Positions 230 to 31,808 of a DNA stretch of 34,903 bases are shown one piece after another. The notes under the pieces were generated by a model. The model was not told the DNA's origin. It was given only the letters and a program-made list of their open reading frames with translations, and did no database searches. A program made the position numbers and the translations under genes. Source of the stretch: a virus. The stretch lies in the IMG/VR virus record IMGVR_UViG_3300041402_000493, positions 1-34,903 of that record, one strand, 5' to 3'. Position 1 is the first letter of the stretch. Every line of letters starts with the position of its first letter.

Positions 230-1114
230 ATGGAATTTAAAAAATACCAGCACCTTGAGAAATTCGGGACAACAGAAGTTAATGAAATTGAAATAGGCAT
301 GTGTCATGTATTCCCTAAAATTGATGGTACAAACGCCTCTCTGTGGTGGAATGATGGACTGAGAGCAGGCAGTAGAAACCGGGAATTGAGTCTTGACAAC
401 GATAATGCCGGTTTCCTGAATTGGGCCGCCATGAACGATAACGTGATCTGTATGTTGGAAGACATGCCACACTTGAGACTTTATGGCGAATGGCTTGTGC
501 CGCATACCCTTAAAACCTATTTAGACTCTGCATGGAGGGACTTCTATGTATTTGACGTTAAGGATGTAAACGACGAATATATCCCCTATAAAGAGTACAA
601 ACAGATACTTGACGATTACGGAGTCAACTATATAGCCCCTATCTGCATCATAAAAAACCCGACAGATGAAACACTTTTCAAATGTCTGGACAAGAATAAC
701 TATCTTATCAAAGACAACGAGGGTGCAGGAGAGGGAATTGTAATAAAAAACTATGGATTTAAAAACCGGTTCGGGAATACCGTATGGGCTAAAATTGTCC
801 GGTCTGAATTCAAAGTAAAGAATCAAAAGGTTTTTGGTGTTTCTGAAATTAAAGAAAAGAATACTCCTGAAGAAATGATAGTAGCAGAATATGTGACCGG
901 GGCCCTGGTCGAAAAAGAATATTCTAAGATCGAGATTGATACAGGATGGAATTCCAGAATGATACCAAAACTTTTGAACGTGGTTTTTTATTGCCTGGTT
1001 AAGGAAGAGTCTTGGAATTTTGTCAAGAAACACAAAAACCCTACAATAAATTATCGAAGGCTTATGTCTTTAACTTTTGCCAGAGTCAAAGAGATTAAAC
1101 CGGAGCTGTTTTAA
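230..1114 (+). CDS. RNA ligase, T4 Rnl2-like nucleotidyltransferase
   Basis: Encodes 294 residues that seal 3'-OH/5'-phosphate RNA nicks through a lysyl-AMP intermediate. The nucleotidyltransferase motifs are visible in order: motif I KIDGTN with the adenylated lysine at residue 30, the SRNREL segment at 48-53, motif III LYGEW with Glu87, motif IV EGIVIK at 168-173, and a motif V lysine in WAKIV at 188. Length fits the Rnl2 group (T4 Rnl2 is 334 residues), with a shorter and unrelated-looking C-terminus. The start follows AAGGA at an acceptable distance. It heads the visible accessory operon and may repair tRNAs cut by host anticodon nucleases, fitting the phage-encoded tRNA array at 26383-26887. 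No polynucleotide kinase is visible in this window. Confidence 0.9.
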   Translation: MEFKKYQHLEKFGTTEVNEIEIGMCHVFPKIDGTNASLWWNDGLRAGSRNRELSLDNDNAGFLNWAAMNDNVICMLEDMPHLRLYGEWLVPHTLKTYLDSAWRDFYVFDVKDVNDEYIPYKEYKQILDDYGVNYIAPICIIKNPTDETLFKCLDKNNYLIKDNEGAGEGIVIKNYGFKNRFGNTVWAKIVRSEFKVKNQKVFGVSEIKEKNTPEEMIVAEYVTGALVEKEYSKIEIDTGWNSRMIPKLLNVVFYCLVKEESWNFVKKHKNPTINYRRLMSLTFARVKEIKPELF

Positions 1115-26266: not shown

Positions 26267-26302
26267 ATCCTCCTTTAAAGTTAAACATGGTAATGAAATA
26301 GC

Positions 26303-26308
26303 ATTATA
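26303..26308 (-). promoter_or_regulatory. candidate -10 box for the replication operon
   Basis: Minus-strand TATAAT lies 37 bp ahead of the zinc-ribbon start, in the intergenic region shared with the divergent tRNA promoter. The matching -35 (ATAAAA at 17 bp) is poor; a TTGACT lies too close (9 bp). Activation by a regulator or another sigma factor would be required, so the call is tentative. Confidence 0.35.
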
Positions 26309-26332
26309 TTTTACCGTAGTCAAGTTTTATTC

Positions 26333-26361
26333 TTGACAAGACAAACAATCAAATGTATGAT
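26333..26361 (+). promoter_or_regulatory. sigma70 promoter for tRNA array and structured RNA
   Basis: TTGACA at 26333-26338, a 17-bp spacer and TATGAT at 26356-26361 give a near-consensus housekeeping promoter. Transcription would start near 26368, about 15 bp before the first tRNA, and no terminator-like hairpin with U-run is seen until 27715. It therefore probably makes one precursor with six tRNAs and the downstream RNA, transcribed against the direction of the flanking operons. Confidence 0.8.
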
Positions 26362-26382
26362 AGCTTAGTTTTTTGAAAATAT

Positions 26383-26456
26383 AGGGGGTCGATTAGGGTG
26401 ACAAGTACGCTTTGGAAGCGTGCGACAGGCTGGTTCGATCCCAGCACCCCCTACCA
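26383..26456 (+). tRNA. tRNA-Pro (UGG)
   Basis: Acceptor AGGGGGT pairs with ACCCCCT; anticodon arm TACGC-TTTGGAA-GCGTG gives anticodon UGG; T-arm GCTGG-TTCGATC-CCAGC; encoded A-CCA end. The D-arm is weak (ATTAGGGTGACAAGT), as sometimes in phage tRNAs. Confidence 0.85.
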
Positions 26457-26462
26457 AAATAA

Positions 26463-26537
26463 AGCGGTATAGAGTACTGGTAACTCAGAGGTCTCATAAG
26501 CCTCGCCATGGCGGTTCGAATCCGCCTACCGCAACCA
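26463..26537 (+). tRNA. tRNA with CAU anticodon (Met or Ile2)
   Basis: D-arm GAGT-ACTGGTA-ACTC, anticodon arm GAGGT-CTCATAA-GCCTC with anticodon CAU, T-arm GGCGG-TTCGAAT-CCGCC and encoded A-CCA are all clear. Acceptor is 6 bp (GCGGTA/TACCGC) with an unpaired A1-A72, reminiscent of the initiator 1-72 mismatch. However, the three G-C pairs of initiator anticodon stems are absent, so it is more likely elongator Met, or Ile if the C is lysidine-modified. Confidence 0.8.
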
Positions 26538-26541
26538 AAGT

Positions 26542-26618
26542 GGCTCTGTGACCCAACTGGCAGAGGTGCCCGGCTTAGAACCGGGTTGTTGAAAGTTCGA
26601 CTCTTTCCGGAGCTACCA
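26542..26618 (+). tRNA. tRNA with UAG anticodon (Leu by codon), short variable loop
   Basis: Acceptor GGCTCTG/CGGAGCT (two G-U pairs), anticodon arm CCCGG-CTTAGAA-CCGGG with anticodon UAG reading CUA, variable loop only TTGTT, T-arm GAAAG-TTCGACT-CTTTC and encoded A-CCA. Bacterial leucine tRNAs normally have a long variable arm; this one is class I in shape, so its charging identity is open. Confidence 0.8.
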
Positions 26619-26627
26619 AAATATGAT

Positions 26628-26704
26628 GTGAGAGCGTTGCTGATTGGTAGAAGCATGCCCGGCTGTGAACCGGGCCATAGGGTTCAATTCCCTCTCTCAC
26701 CCCA
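26628..26704 (+). tRNA. tRNA-His (GUG)
   Basis: Acceptor GTGAGAG/CTCTCAC, anticodon arm CCCGG-CTGTGAA-CCGGG (GUG), T-arm around AGGG-TTCAATT-CCCT, C73 and encoded CCA. The base before the acceptor is T, so the G-1 typical of histidine tRNA is not encoded in the usual register. Position 8 is C and the D-stem is short, i.e. the tRNA is degenerate. Confidence 0.75.
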
Positions 26705-26706
26705 AA

Positions 26707-26795
26707 GCCTGTTTAACCCGTACTCGGAAGCGGTCCAGACTGTAAATCTGGTGTTCTTAGGAACTCGGTTGGTTCAAGTCCAACAGCAGGCACCA
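26707..26795 (+). tRNA. tRNA-Tyr (GUA)
   Basis: Class II tRNA of 89 nt. Acceptor GCCTGTT/AGCAGGC, anticodon arm CCAGA-CTGTAAA-TCTGG with anticodon GUA, long variable arm (TGTTCTTAGGAACTC region) as expected for bacterial Tyr, T-arm around GTTGG-TTCAAGT-CCAAC and encoded A-CCA. It starts only 2 bp after the His tRNA. Confidence 0.9.
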
Positions 26796-26811
26796 AACGA
26801 TCTTTTACAAT

Positions 26812-26887
26812 AGGTCCCAATGTTCCAAGGCTGGCGAATGAGACTCCAAATCTTATTGGCGGGGTTCGATTCCCCGGGGGCTTGCCA
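26812..26887 (+). tRNA. tRNA-Trp (CCA)
   Basis: Acceptor AGGTCCC/GGGGCTT (with G-U pairs), anticodon arm TGAGA-CTCCAAA-TCTTA giving anticodon CCA, T-arm CGGGG-TTCGATT-CCCCG, discriminator G and encoded CCA. D-arm is weak. It is the last recognisable tRNA before the structured region. Confidence 0.85.
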
Positions 26888-27376
26888 AATTTACTTAAAT
26901 TTAAAGCCAGCACAGGCAGGAGGTAACAGAGTGTGAAAACAAACTTTACCGGGTCCGTGAGAGATCGGCAGAACAAAATGATCTTTGAAAACTTATATTT
27001 TTAAGAAGGAGCACCGGCAAGAAAAAAACAAGCACAGCGGTTTGTTATTCAGATAGCCGGGACTGAACCGCAACGGAGGTGCTTGAGCTCCTTTTTAAGA
27101 ATATAAGAATTTGTACTTGTAGTTTAAAGAAAACACCTGGGAAGGAACGCTTGGGAGAATGCTGGTGTAGACTCCAGCCGGGACGCCAAATTTACCAAGC
27201 CCACAGGAACAAGAATCCTTTTAGTTCGACCCTGTGGCAGTATACGGCCTACATACTGAATGTCTGGCCCATGAAAGCTCGGTACAATATGCCGGGAAAT
27301 GAAAGCGCAGCCCTCGCCAATCCCTCATGGCGCCGAGTTGGTTGGCTTGCGGTTGCTTTAAATGTTCTTTTAAAAT

Positions 27377-27529
27377 ATGTGTGGTAGCTCAGCTGGTTAG
27401 AGCACTGGGGAATAGAAAGTCCCCGGGCATTTTCACTTCGGTGGAGAGACGGTATAAAAACCCGAGCGCAGGTTCAACTCCTGGAGACTGACTATGCCAC
27501 CGATTTGAAGCCCCGACAACCACCCACAT
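27377..27529 (+). other. tRNA-like domain embedded in the structured RNA
   Basis: U8-A9 followed by a perfect D-arm GCTC-AGCTGGTTA-GAGC (27387-27403), then an extended 7-bp 'anticodon' stem CTGGGGA/TCCCCGG with an 8-nt loop ATAGAAAG (27412-27419), a large variable insert with a UUCG-capped hairpin (27430-27447), and a T-arm-like GCAGG-TTCAACT-CCTGG (27468-27484). ATGTG-TGG (27377-27384) pairs with CCA-CC-CACAT (27520-27529) to close the domain. No acceptor with CCA end, so it is not a normal decoding tRNA. Confidence 0.6.
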
Positions 27530-27714
27530 AATACGAACTAAAAACATCCTGTGCATTGGGCCACATGTAGCACTTAAATGTGTAAAAAAGGAACCTTGGT
27601 TGACTCAGCCCACAGGCAAACTACCAATAACGGATAAATAAGTATTAACCATAAACAAAAGGGGAATCTATGTGAAGGTATTCTAAAAAATGTTGATTGG
27701 TTTCTGCAAAAGTT

Positions 27715-27750
27715 AAAAGGCCCTTAGACGATTCTGAGGGCCTTTTTGTT
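27715..27750. terminator. intrinsic terminator, bidirectional
   Basis: AAAAGGCCCT and AGGGCCTTTT form a 10-bp stem around a 12-nt loop, followed by TTTTTGTTTT on the plus strand, ending the tRNA/structured-RNA transcript. In the opposite direction the stem is followed by TTTTAACTTTT, so it can also end the minus-strand operon whose last gene stops at 27751. Confidence 0.85.
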
Positions 27751-27945
27751 TTAGTCTTCATCCGCTTCTTCATACTGCCTAAATTCTACATCTCTCCACT
27801 CACAAAGCCCCAGATAGTGGCCACAATTACCGCATTTTATCGGCCCGTTGCCAGTTTCCCAGATCCAAAAAATCTTACCAGGGTTTTTTGGTTTGCAATT
27901 CGGGCAGGGGCAGTATTGTTTTTTTTTGCATTTTGGGCAGATCAT
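27751..27945 (-). CDS. zinc-ribbon protein
   Basis: 64 residues with four Cys pairs or clusters: CPKC (3-6), CPCPNC, CGNC and a final C in GLCEW, enough for two zinc sites, plus an acidic C-terminus (RQYEEADED). Its ATG overlaps the upstream stop as ATGA. It is the last gene of the minus-strand early operon, directly at the terminator. Function unknown. Confidence 0.65.
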   Translation of the reverse strand: MICPKCKKKQYCPCPNCKPKNPGKIFWIWETGNGPIKCGNCGHYLGLCEWRDVEFRQYEEADED

Positions 27946-28661
27946 ACAGCATACCCCCGAATCTCAGGGTCAATCCCTTTTATGATTGGAATATATGTTT
28001 TGCACCCGTCACAGTTTAAAGAGTTCATGATTTTACAAGCCATCACACCAGAGCAATAGTCGCCTCGTTTATCAATTGACCACCCGGAGTAATCGGATAT
28101 ATTTTTAGGAGAACTGTGTTTTTTACACTTGTTCATTGGCGTTAATTTTTCTCCAACTTCACCGCAACCGCAATCATAAAGCTTGAATTTTACCAGGAAA
28201 CCAGATTTTTCTTTAGTGGGATTTTCGCAGACCTGGCAGCAGGAAACCATAAACCCGTCTATCAACTTCAATGTTGCCTCCCGGGTTGTATGGTGGGAAA
28301 CATGGCCGCACTTGTAGAAATTATATATCCCTGGTTTTAATAACAACCCTGCCGCAATTATTTTTTTCTTTGCGTGAGTTGTTGATATAACCGATTTTAC
28401 AGCAAGGTAGCGTCTATTCTTCATCTCTGCATGTCGTGTTTTGGCACAAGCTGGGCATCTGTCCGGGGCTTTGCCGTATGTGTCGAAAATGAAATCTTTC
28501 TCGCAATCTGGGCAATTCCTTTTTCTCTTTGTTACGAGCCCTTTATGCTCTTTGCACATTTTACCCTTTCTGCTTCCGTCAAAGGAGGCTCTTTTTATTT
28601 GGTCTTTCGTTAGTTCGCATTGGCCGCCTGGGCAGGCAGTCAAATATATTATTTCTGACAT
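27942..28661 (-). CDS. multi-zinc-finger hypothetical protein
   Basis: 239 residues with about twenty Cys. Clusters in order: CPGGQC, a CKEH, CPDCEKDF, CPACAKTRH, a C-H-C-C set in FYKCGHVSHH and SCCQVCENP, CGCGEVG, CKKH, and CDGCKTY near the C-terminus. Basic segments between clusters (TKRKRNCPDC; HAKKK) suggest nucleic-acid binding. I recognise no complete family; the central CPDCEKDF/CPAC part resembles ribbons of HNH-associated phage proteins. It overlaps the HNH gene by 13 bp. Confidence 0.65.
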   Translation of the reverse strand: MSEIIYLTACPGGQCELTKDQIKRASFDGSRKGKMCKEHKGLVTKRKRNCPDCEKDFIFDTYGKAPDRCPACAKTRHAEMKNRRYLAVKSVISTTHAKKKIIAAGLLLKPGIYNFYKCGHVSHHTTREATLKLIDGFMVSCCQVCENPTKEKSGFLVKFKLYDCGCGEVGEKLTPMNKCKKHSSPKNISDYSGWSIDKRGDYCSGVMACKIMNSLNCDGCKTYIPIIKGIDPEIRGYAV

Positions 28662-28909
28662 TTTAAAAACTCCCCGTTATGAGATTTACCGTGGCACATT
28701 TTGCACCCGGTCCGTAAATTGTTTAAATCATCCCCTCCCCCGGCCCCCACAGATACGATATGGCAGGGTGATAGGTATTCAAAAAGGAACTGAAGGCCAC
28801 ACCAGAAGCAGATAAACCCATCCCTGGTGAATGTTTCGAGTACCCGGGCTTTCCATGCTTTGGAATTTCGGGGTAATCTTTCTCTTTTTGGCTTCGGATC
28901 TGCTGGCAT
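28649..28909 (-). CDS. HNH endonuclease-type protein
   Basis: 86 residues. FTRDGFICFWCGLQF supplies the first Cys pair (CFWC), PCHIVSVGAGGGDDLNNL the catalytic His and Asn, and CKMCHGKSH the second Cys pair and final His, i.e. a complete small HNH with structural zinc. Single-domain HNH proteins of this size occur in packaging and recombination regions and as NinG-like nucleases. N-terminus is basic (KPKRERLPRNSKAWKAR). AAGGAAAAG site ahead. Confidence 0.8.
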   Translation of the reverse strand: MPADPKPKRERLPRNSKAWKARVLETFTRDGFICFWCGLQFLFEYLSPCHIVSVGAGGGDDLNNLRTGCKMCHGKSHNGEFLKCQK

Positions 28910-30931: not shown

Positions 30932-31117
30932 TTAAAGTTCGTCAGCGTGGCAATAGCTTACAGCGCTAAGTTCATGGGCCTTGGTTTGGAAATCTTCCCC
31001 GGAATATGCCATGCTTTCCCCGGCTTGCTTTCTTGTCTCGTTTTCGCATTTCATGGCCTCAATTTCTGCCTGGACAGAAAAAATCAATCCTAATCTTTTA
31101 ACATCTGTTCCTTCCAT
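30932..31117 (-). CDS. hypothetical helical protein
   Basis: 61 residues, mainly helical (LIFSVQAEIEAMKCENETRK, DFQTKAHELSAVSY), acidic. GGAGAGCAAAG ahead of the ATG. Overlaps the AP2-HNH gene end by 28 bp, which suggests that the endonuclease gene was inserted upstream of it. Length and composition resemble small phage hypothetical proteins; unassigned. Confidence 0.5.
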   Translation of the reverse strand: MEGTDVKRLGLIFSVQAEIEAMKCENETRKQAGESMAYSGEDFQTKAHELSAVSYCHADEL

Positions 31118-31662
31118 CTTTGCTCTCCTTTGTTTTGAAACATATCCTGAACATATTTAAACGCTGGACTACTTGAATCGCACCCACTCCACCCCAAACA
31201 TTGTTCCATTGCAAGCCTGGCACAAGCTGCTTCTGCAAATTCGGCATGGCTTCCAAGTTGAATAACCTTGCTGTTAATTGAAATCTGGGATCTCCACCTT
31301 TTGTCAATTTTATTCCAAGTAACCCCTTTTACCCCTGAGGTATTGTTTTTCCATTCCCCGGCATTCCTAAGATTACACATGTGGCTGACTTCTCTTAAAT
31401 TTTCAATCCTATTATCAGAGGTGTTTCTATTTATATGGTCTAATTCATTTTCAGGAAACGATCCGTAATAATATAACCACGCCAACCTGTGTGCTCTATA
31501 AATTTTATAAGATATATAAATAATCCTATACCTTTTGTCGTTTAAACAACCAGGCTGGTTATGCAAGCTTCGCCCTTTTCCGGATTTAATCCATTTAAAA
31601 ACACCAGTTTCAGGATCATAGTGTAAAAGTTCTTTCAACCGTTTTTGAGTGATATTGTTCAT
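31090..31662 (-). CDS. HNH endonuclease with AP2-like domain
   Basis: 190 residues from the ATG at 31662, which overlaps the RHH stop as ATGA. N-terminal LKELLHYDPETGVFKWIKSG (NUMOD4/HNH-associated opening), HNH core YRAHRLAWLYYYGSFPENELDHIN followed by DNRIENLREVSHMCNLRN, then a C-terminal AP2-type DNA-binding segment (SGVKGVTWNKIDKRWRSQI, QLGSHAEFAEAACARLA). This is the usual build of phage free-standing homing endonucleases, so the gene is probably a mobile invader of the RHH transcription unit. Confidence 0.85.
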   Translation of the reverse strand: MNNITQKRLKELLHYDPETGVFKWIKSGKGRSLHNQPGCLNDKRYRIIYISYKIYRAHRLAWLYYYGSFPENELDHINRNTSDNRIENLREVSHMCNLRNAGEWKNNTSGVKGVTWNKIDKRWRSQISINSKVIQLGSHAEFAEAACARLAMEQCLGWSGCDSSSPAFKYVQDMFQNKGEQRWKEQMLKD

Positions 31663-31808
31663 TTCTTGTCTTCTTTTTTGATATACCAATCCAGGGCAAC
31701 AACAACAAACTCCTTAAGAGAAATCCCCTGTTTTGCAGCTTCAACCTTTGCCTTGCGCTTTGATTCTTCAGGAATGTTTACCATCATATTTATCATTTTA
31801 TCAGACAC
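31659..31808 (-). CDS. ribbon-helix-helix regulator (GTG start)
   Basis: 49 residues starting at a GTG preceded by AGGGGGTAAC. MINMMVNIPEESKRKAKVEA is the DNA-contacting strand and first helix, and KQGISLKEFVVVALDWYI the second helix, matching the compact Arc/CopG/HicB-type RHH fold. It is the first gene behind its own promoter and has an AT-rich dyad over the -10 region, so autoregulation is likely. Longer upstream ATG frames (to 31877) would run through the promoter and are rejected. Confidence 0.75.
   Translation of the reverse strand: MSDKMINMMVNIPEESKRKAKVEAAKQGISLKEFVVVALDWYIKKEDKK

What the first reader, a model, noticed from the sequence alone, without database searches (positions are those of the whole stretch)
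26891..27750. Large ornate non-coding RNA downstream of a phage tRNA array
About 860 nt carry no credible gene but many mutually consistent pairings: a 21-bp helix without mismatch (26992-27012 with 27087-27107), a 5-bp loop pseudoknot inside it (27014-27018 with 27056-27060), a 9-bp pairing across about 450 nt (26899-26907 with 27355-27363), several local hairpins, a UUCG hairpin and a final multi-stem domain (27548-27616). A sigma70 promoter lies before the tRNAs and an intrinsic terminator at 27715. Known classes with this size, phage location and tRNA linkage are GOLLD and ROOL. It is either a divergent member or a new class.
Basis: partly seen in the sequence, partly recalled or inferred. 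Interest (0 to 1): 0.95.

Follow-up and report, generated by a model that had tools for sequence, protein, structure and literature searches.

The report
Orphan structured RNA after phage tRNAs
Just after six tRNA genes, this phage carries about 830 bases that encode no protein and probably make a folded RNA with one unmistakable knotted hairpin and one tRNA-derived piece; it is not either known giant phage RNA (GOLLD or ROOL), and no relative was found, so a new RNA class is possible but unproven.

Summary
The window is an IMG/VR phage fragment. Its only large gene-free stretch (26324-27750) is a + strand unit: near-consensus sigma70 promoter, six tRNAs, about 827 nt of candidate ncRNA, intrinsic terminator. 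No Rfam family but tRNA gives a credible match, even at E<=10. GOLLD and ROOL models are silent here but ring in control records, including a divergent GOLLD at half its cut-off. Not above chance: the 9-bp long-range pairing, other long-range pairings, and the 'final multi-stem domain'. No homologue was found in IMG/VR, GTDB, phage or plasmid records with the methods available, so covariation could not be tested. Best reading: a phage large structured RNA that works like, but is not, GOLLD/ROOL. Main rival: a smaller pseudoknotted RNA plus a deformed seventh tRNA in one trailer.

The parts
26333..26361 (+). sigma70-type promoter, TTGACA-17 nt-TATGAT
   Evidence: 11 of 12 consensus positions, the best of 15 sites in 3.4 kb
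26383..26887 (+). array of six tRNA genes: Pro(UGG), Met(CAU), Leu(UAG), His(GUG), Tyr(GUA), Trp(CCA)
   Evidence: ARAGORN; Rfam tRNA
26888..27714 (+). candidate non-coding RNA body, from the end of tRNA-Trp to the terminator
   Evidence: no credible gene; folding z -2.3 without the terminator; z -4.4 with it.
26992..27107 (+). long arm: 21-bp helix 26992-27012/27087-27107 (two G.U pairs)
   Evidence: longest of 300 shuffles is 19; z -6.5; pair probability about 1; 1 other such site in 1.47 Mb
27014..27085 (+). pseudoknotted cap of the arm: 27029-27035/27079-27085 (7 bp) and 27037-27044/27064-27071 (8 bp), crossed by 27014-27018/27056-27060 (5 bp)
   Evidence: 1 of 1000 shuffles has as stable a crossing pair
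27201..27237 (+). 7-bp hairpin CCACAGG/CCUGUGG with UUCG-containing loop
   Evidence: z -2.7, p 0.01; pair probability 0.7-0.8. Its loop could pair with 27534-27543 (10 bp), but pairings that long are expected by chance.
27381..27500 (+). tRNA-derived module: canonical D-arm 27385-27404, T-arm 27469-27483, acceptor-like GUGG/CCAC (27381-27384/27497-27500), with 64 nt in place of the anticodon arm and variable loop, including hairpins 27405-27426 and 27430-27447
   Evidence: pattern absent from 100 shuffles; D-arm half matches tRNA-like DNA elsewhere; not called by ARAGORN
   Evidence: z +0.5; forcing it costs about 5 kcal/mol
27715..27746 (+). intrinsic terminator (14-bp stem, 4-nt loop, U-rich tail)

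Best explanation
A single + strand transcript starts at 26333-26361, runs through six tRNAs and ends at 27746. tRNA processing releases the tRNAs and leaves an RNA of about 830 nt (26888 to the terminator). That RNA is a stable, non-coding, self-folding accessory RNA of the phage: a rigid pseudoknot-capped arm, a central set of hairpins, and a tRNA-derived module built in near the 3' end. It most likely accumulates during infection and acts as a structural RNA particle or scaffold in the manner of GOLLD and ROOL, without being homologous to them; the tRNA-derived module would play the part of the tRNA that some GOLLD RNAs carry in their linker. Shown by sequence: promoter, tRNAs, terminator, lack of genes, the pseudoknotted arm, the tRNA origin of the module. 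Inferred: that it is expressed, that it is one RNA, its 5' end, its abundance, any oligomer and any function.
For: Operon layout with promoter and terminator on the strand opposite to the neighbouring genes. Only large gene gap of the window and no protein family in its ORFs. Long arm and pseudoknot far above shuffles and rare in phage DNA. Precedents: GOLLD and ROOL lie in phages near tRNA islands, form RNA-only cages, and GOLLD linkers sometimes contain phage tRNAs (PMC12286853). Unassigned RNAs of this size and placement are the most abundant transcript of phage ICP1 (PMC7567579) and occur next to phage K tRNA genes (PMC9241854).
Against: No homologue, so no covariation. Long-range pairings that would tie 860 nt into one fold are at chance level, and the 3' third folds no better than shuffled sequence. 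No expression data. The nearest relative found (L008; portal 92% identical, though the locus holds only half of it) ends just before the place where the RNA would lie.
Confidence: 0.45

Rival explanations
1. Composite trailer: the region is not one ornate RNA but a small pseudoknotted RNA (about 26985-27112, perhaps to 27375), then a seventh tRNA-shaped element whose anticodon arm has been replaced (27381-27500), then unstructured trailer. The pieces are cut apart by tRNA-processing nucleases.
For: Structure significance is confined to the arm and, weakly, to 27113-27375 (z -2.1); 27376-27505, 27544-27620 and the windows around them are at or above shuffle level. The tRNA-derived module keeps tRNA spacing and orientation in line with the array. 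A search for its architecture shows that tRNA-shaped genes with 55-80 nt between D-arm and T-arm are recurrent in phage tRNA arrays, often with full acceptor stems. An 11-nt copy of the tRNA-Trp 3' end and spacer (GCCAAATTTAC) recurs at 27185.
Against: The module's acceptor stem is poor (4 bp plus an imperfect extension), so RNase P and RNase Z sites are doubtful. No second promoter or terminator separates the pieces. Real tRNAs also give weak folding z-scores, so a low z does not show lack of structure.
Confidence: 0.35
2. A highly diverged GOLLD or ROOL RNA.
For: Similar size, phage location, tRNA linkage and a tRNA-like insert (PMC12286853).
Against: No match to RF02032 or RF03087 at E<=10, while the same searches find ROOL in pMP118 and a GOLLD at half the cut-off in G046. 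By eye, the conserved GOLLD and ROOL stretches seen in those alignments have no counterpart here.
Confidence: 0.06
3. A DNA-level element, such as a replication origin, an attachment region or a remnant of a mobile element, which happens to contain a large inverted repeat.
For: It lies next to the DnaD-like helicase-loader gene, and phage origins are often near such genes (general knowledge).
Against: No iterons or tandem direct repeats. The inverted repeat has a pseudoknotted interior that is meaningful only as RNA. Promoter and terminator frame it as a transcript.
Confidence: 0.07
4. The region encodes a protein.
For: A 102-codon open frame exists at 27079-27387.
Against: The frame runs through the 3' half of the arm's cap, the 3' strand of the 21-bp helix and into the tRNA-derived module; no Pfam match; no relative in IMG/VR or GTDB by peptide-pattern search.
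Confidence: 0.02

Closest known systems
GOLLD RNA (Rfam RF02032)
   Same: Large phage non-coding RNA next to tRNA islands; some members carry a tRNA in the linker (PMC12286853); size about 800 nt.
   Different: No covariance-model match at E<=10. The conserved GOLLD stretches seen in the positive control have no visible counterpart. No oligomer data.
ROOL RNA (Rfam RF03087)
   Same: Phage and plasmid large RNA, often near tRNA islands, with several pseudoknots (PMC12286853).
   Different: No match at E<=10. ROOL is 574 model positions, closed by pairing of its own two ends; here the only proposed closing helix joins position 26899 to 27363, leaves about 350 nt outside, and is at chance level.
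Abundant ~800-nt ncRNA of Vibrio phage ICP1
   Same: Orf-less space of about 1 kb, no Rfam assignment, compared with GOLLD/ROOL by its finders (PMC7567579); cmscan here gives it no credible family either.
   Different: ICP1 has no tRNAs, and its RNA is shown to be expressed; this one is not. The hairpin model of this RNA does not match ICP1.
Phage K (Kayvirus) lncRNAs
   Same: Located at tRNA genes, with unknown function (PMC9241854).
   Different: Expressed in infection; no sequence relation found in the phage collection.

Membership tests
GOLLD (RF02032) | match to the conserved-region covariance model | tested here: not met
   nothing at E<=10. Positive control: divergent GOLLD in G046, 77.8 bits, E 1.4e-21.
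GOLLD (RF02032) | phage-encoded, close to a tRNA island | tested here: met
GOLLD (RF02032) | forms a homo-oligomeric cage (14-mer) | not testable with these tools
   needs cryo-EM or native gels
ROOL (RF03087) | match to the covariance model (574 positions, cut-off 99.1 bits) | tested here: not met
   nothing at E<=10. Positive control: pMP118, 130.4 bits.
ROOL (RF03087) | long helix joining the 5' and 3' ends | tested here: not met
   no significant end-to-end helix; the best candidate closes 26899-27363 only and is at chance level
Large structured tRNA-linked phage RNAs (informal kind) | several hundred nt without genes, own promoter or tRNA operon, and terminator | tested here: met
Large structured tRNA-linked phage RNAs (informal kind) | extensive structure supported by covariation | tested here: inconclusive
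   one arm with pseudoknot is significant; no homologues for covariation
Large structured tRNA-linked phage RNAs (informal kind) | abundant stable transcript | not testable with these tools
   no expression data
tRNA | cloverleaf with 7-bp acceptor and 5-bp anticodon stem (27381-27500) | tested here: not met
   not called; D-arm and T-arm canonical, anticodon arm replaced, acceptor poor

The most novel reading that the evidence does not exclude
A new class of large phage structural RNA, unrelated in sequence to GOLLD and ROOL, built around a pseudoknot-capped 21-bp arm and with a tRNA-derived module incorporated into its body.
Probability: 0.3. Interest if true: 0.75.

Novelty: new variant of a known kind. 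Interest (0 to 1): 0.48.

Why it matters
GOLLD and ROOL are among the largest structured RNAs known in phages and make RNA-only cages, yet their function is unknown. A third, unrelated RNA in the same genomic setting would indicate that phages repeatedly evolve such RNAs beside tRNA arrays, and a tRNA-derived module within one would point to a tRNA-related role. If it is only a trailer with a deformed tRNA, it is still an example of tRNA-shaped phage RNAs with replaced anticodon arms, which turned up repeatedly in the search for its relatives.

Tried and rejected
Homologue searches that failed: blastn against phage records (only tRNA-arm matches) and plasmids. Terminase, DnaD-like, DHH and zinc-protein neighbours in IMG/VR and terminase in GTDB: relatives of the phage were found but none with this RNA. 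The 16-mer ACTCAGCCCACAGGCA in IMG/VR: 4 hits that look like chance matches in unrelated genes. The tRNA-like architecture in IMG/VR: 61 contigs, no relation outside the tRNA core. The RNA translated mechanically and used as peptide patterns: nothing; one search was weak, because four of its six patterns contained recoded stops. Covariance model of the arm alone in 49 phage and plasmid records: nothing. Taxonomic sampling of host genomes was not possible for a virus record. I first queried RF01998 by mistake for GOLLD; GOLLD is RF02032. Considered and rejected: group I intron in a tRNA (no Rfam intron hit at E<=10; the insert is only 64 nt); tmRNA (ARAGORN finds none; a full D-arm is present); intact intron-containing tRNA (ARAGORN with introns allowed does not call 27381-27500).

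Full report
Setting. The window is a 34,903-base IMG/VR record classed as linear, i.e. a fragment. It carries a tailed-phage gene set on the minus strand: terminase, portal, major head protein, head closure protein, DnaD-like helicase loader and RecT-like protein. The nearest named phages share only about 45% of the terminase. The stretch 26324-27750 is the only large gap in the genes, 1427 nt against 366 nt for the next. It is framed on the plus strand by a near-consensus sigma70 promoter at 26333-26361 and an intrinsic terminator at 27715-27746, and starts with six tRNA genes. The open frames in it match no Pfam family.

Known RNA families. Rfam finds tRNA and no other credible family: at E<=10 over 26300-27800 the remaining lines are low-scoring chance matches. 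GOLLD (RF02032) and ROOL (RF03087) searched directly give nothing. These are meaningful negatives: the same search finds ROOL in plasmid pMP118 with E 1.1e-29 and, in a tRNA-rich phage contig, a GOLLD at 77.8 bits, about half Rfam's cut-off, with E 1.4e-21.

Structure that stands. The 21-bp helix 26992-27012/27087-27107 contains 19 Watson-Crick and 2 G.U pairs. In 300 dinucleotide shuffles of the 860 nt the longest helix was 19. In 1.47 Mb of phage DNA fetched here only one other site has a helix of 21 bp or more around a 20-109-nt loop. The 128-nt arm folds with z -6.5. Its 74-nt cap can form two more helices, 27029-27035/27079-27085 (7 bp) and 27037-27044/27064-27071 (8 bp). Only 1 of 1000 shuffles of the cap has as stable a crossing pair. 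Nested-only folding programs choose a different, weaker cap, so the two inner helices are a proposal resting on stacking energy. The hairpin 27201-27237 has p 0.01. Very stable short hairpins (stack energy -14 or below, span under 40) number 4 against 0.9 expected, reached in 5 of 200 shuffles; one of the four is the terminator.

Structure that does not stand. The 9-bp pairing over about 450 nt, and a 10-bp pairing 27219-27228/27534-27543 that I noticed, are of a length expected by chance in 860 nt (3 observed against 1.5 expected at 9 bp or more). The 9-bp pairing has a predicted probability of 0.02. Strong helices over 120-900 nt are not enriched overall. The 'final multi-stem domain' 27548-27616 folds no better than shuffles (z +0.5). 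'Many mutually consistent pairings' across the whole 860 nt is therefore not established.

A tRNA-derived module. At 27385-27404 lies a fully canonical tRNA D-arm (TAGCTCAGCTGGTTAGAGCA) and at 27469-27483 a canonical T-arm, 64 nt apart instead of about 25. The pattern does not occur in 100 shuffles, and the D-arm half matches tRNA-like DNA in phages and plasmids. The acceptor is reduced to GUGG/CCAC. The anticodon arm and variable loop are replaced by a 7-bp hairpin (27405-27411/27420-27426), the UUCG hairpin and a short linker. ARAGORN does not call it. Searching IMG/VR for the same architecture gave 61 contigs; many are tRNA-shaped genes with good acceptor stems and an expanded anticodon region, of several unrelated kinds. 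None resembles this RNA outside the tRNA core.

Homologues. None was found with DNA similarity in phage and plasmid records, exact or degenerate patterns in IMG/VR and GTDB genomes, the neighbouring proteins or a covariance model of the arm in 49 whole records. The closest relative phage, L008, ends just before the place where the RNA would be. Pattern searches need exact words of about 16 bases, so a relative below roughly 80% identity could be missed. Covariation could not be tested.

Interpretation. The safest statement is that the phage carries a tRNA operon whose 3' part is a non-coding RNA with at least one strongly supported pseudoknotted arm and a tRNA-derived module. The setting matches GOLLD and ROOL, which lie near tRNA islands and, for GOLLD, sometimes carry tRNAs in a linker (PMC12286853), and other unassigned phage RNAs such as those of ICP1 (PMC7567579) and phage K (PMC9241854). 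My best explanation is a GOLLD/ROOL-like accessory structural RNA of separate origin (0.45). The main rival is a composite of a smaller pseudoknotted RNA and a deformed seventh tRNA (0.35). The two make opposite predictions for a northern blot or for read coverage across 27381 and 27500. As to novelty, it fails the membership tests for both named families but belongs to a known kind of thing.

Noticed in passing
L107, L137, L132, L147, L103, L099, L090, L122, L093, L105, L139, L118, L143, L101, L142, L120, L129, L130, L124 and others: Recurrent phage tRNA-shaped genes with intact D-arm, T-arm and 6-7 bp acceptor but 55-80 nt between D-arm and T-arm, mostly not called by ARAGORN. Several unrelated insert families, each found in several contigs; inserts are too short for group I introns.
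   Followed up: partly
L096, L106, L112, L128, L138: tRNA-shaped genes whose anticodon region holds a second T-arm-like hairpin (ACGGTTCGAGTCCGT) followed by a GAAA-capped hairpin; nearly identical across five contigs.
   Followed up: no
G046:C1:152055-152483 (L169), contig IMGVR_UViG_3300021387_001157: A divergent GOLLD RNA inside a large tRNA array, 77.8 bits with E 1.4e-21, below Rfam's gathering score of 150.
   Followed up: partly
window 230-1114 (+): RNA ligase (Pfam RNA_ligase PF09414, E 2.5e-19) in the same phage as the tRNA array; such ligases can repair cleaved tRNAs (general knowledge).
   Followed up: no
window 26884-26894 and 27185-27195: An 11-nt exact repeat, GCCAAATTTAC: the 3' end of tRNA-Trp with its spacer, repeated inside the candidate RNA; possibly a remnant of tRNA-array duplication (5 of 100 shuffles align as well).
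   Followed up: partly
window 28649-28909 and 31090-31689 (-): Likely HNH endonuclease genes flank the region on the right; 31090-31689 has HNH_3 (E 2.8e-16) and a weak AP2 match, typical of free-standing homing endonucleases. 28649-28909 is judged by sequence only.
   Followed up: no
L154 845-935: A 26-bp uninterrupted helix with a 39-nt loop, the only one longer than the window's in 1.47 Mb of phage DNA.
   Followed up: no
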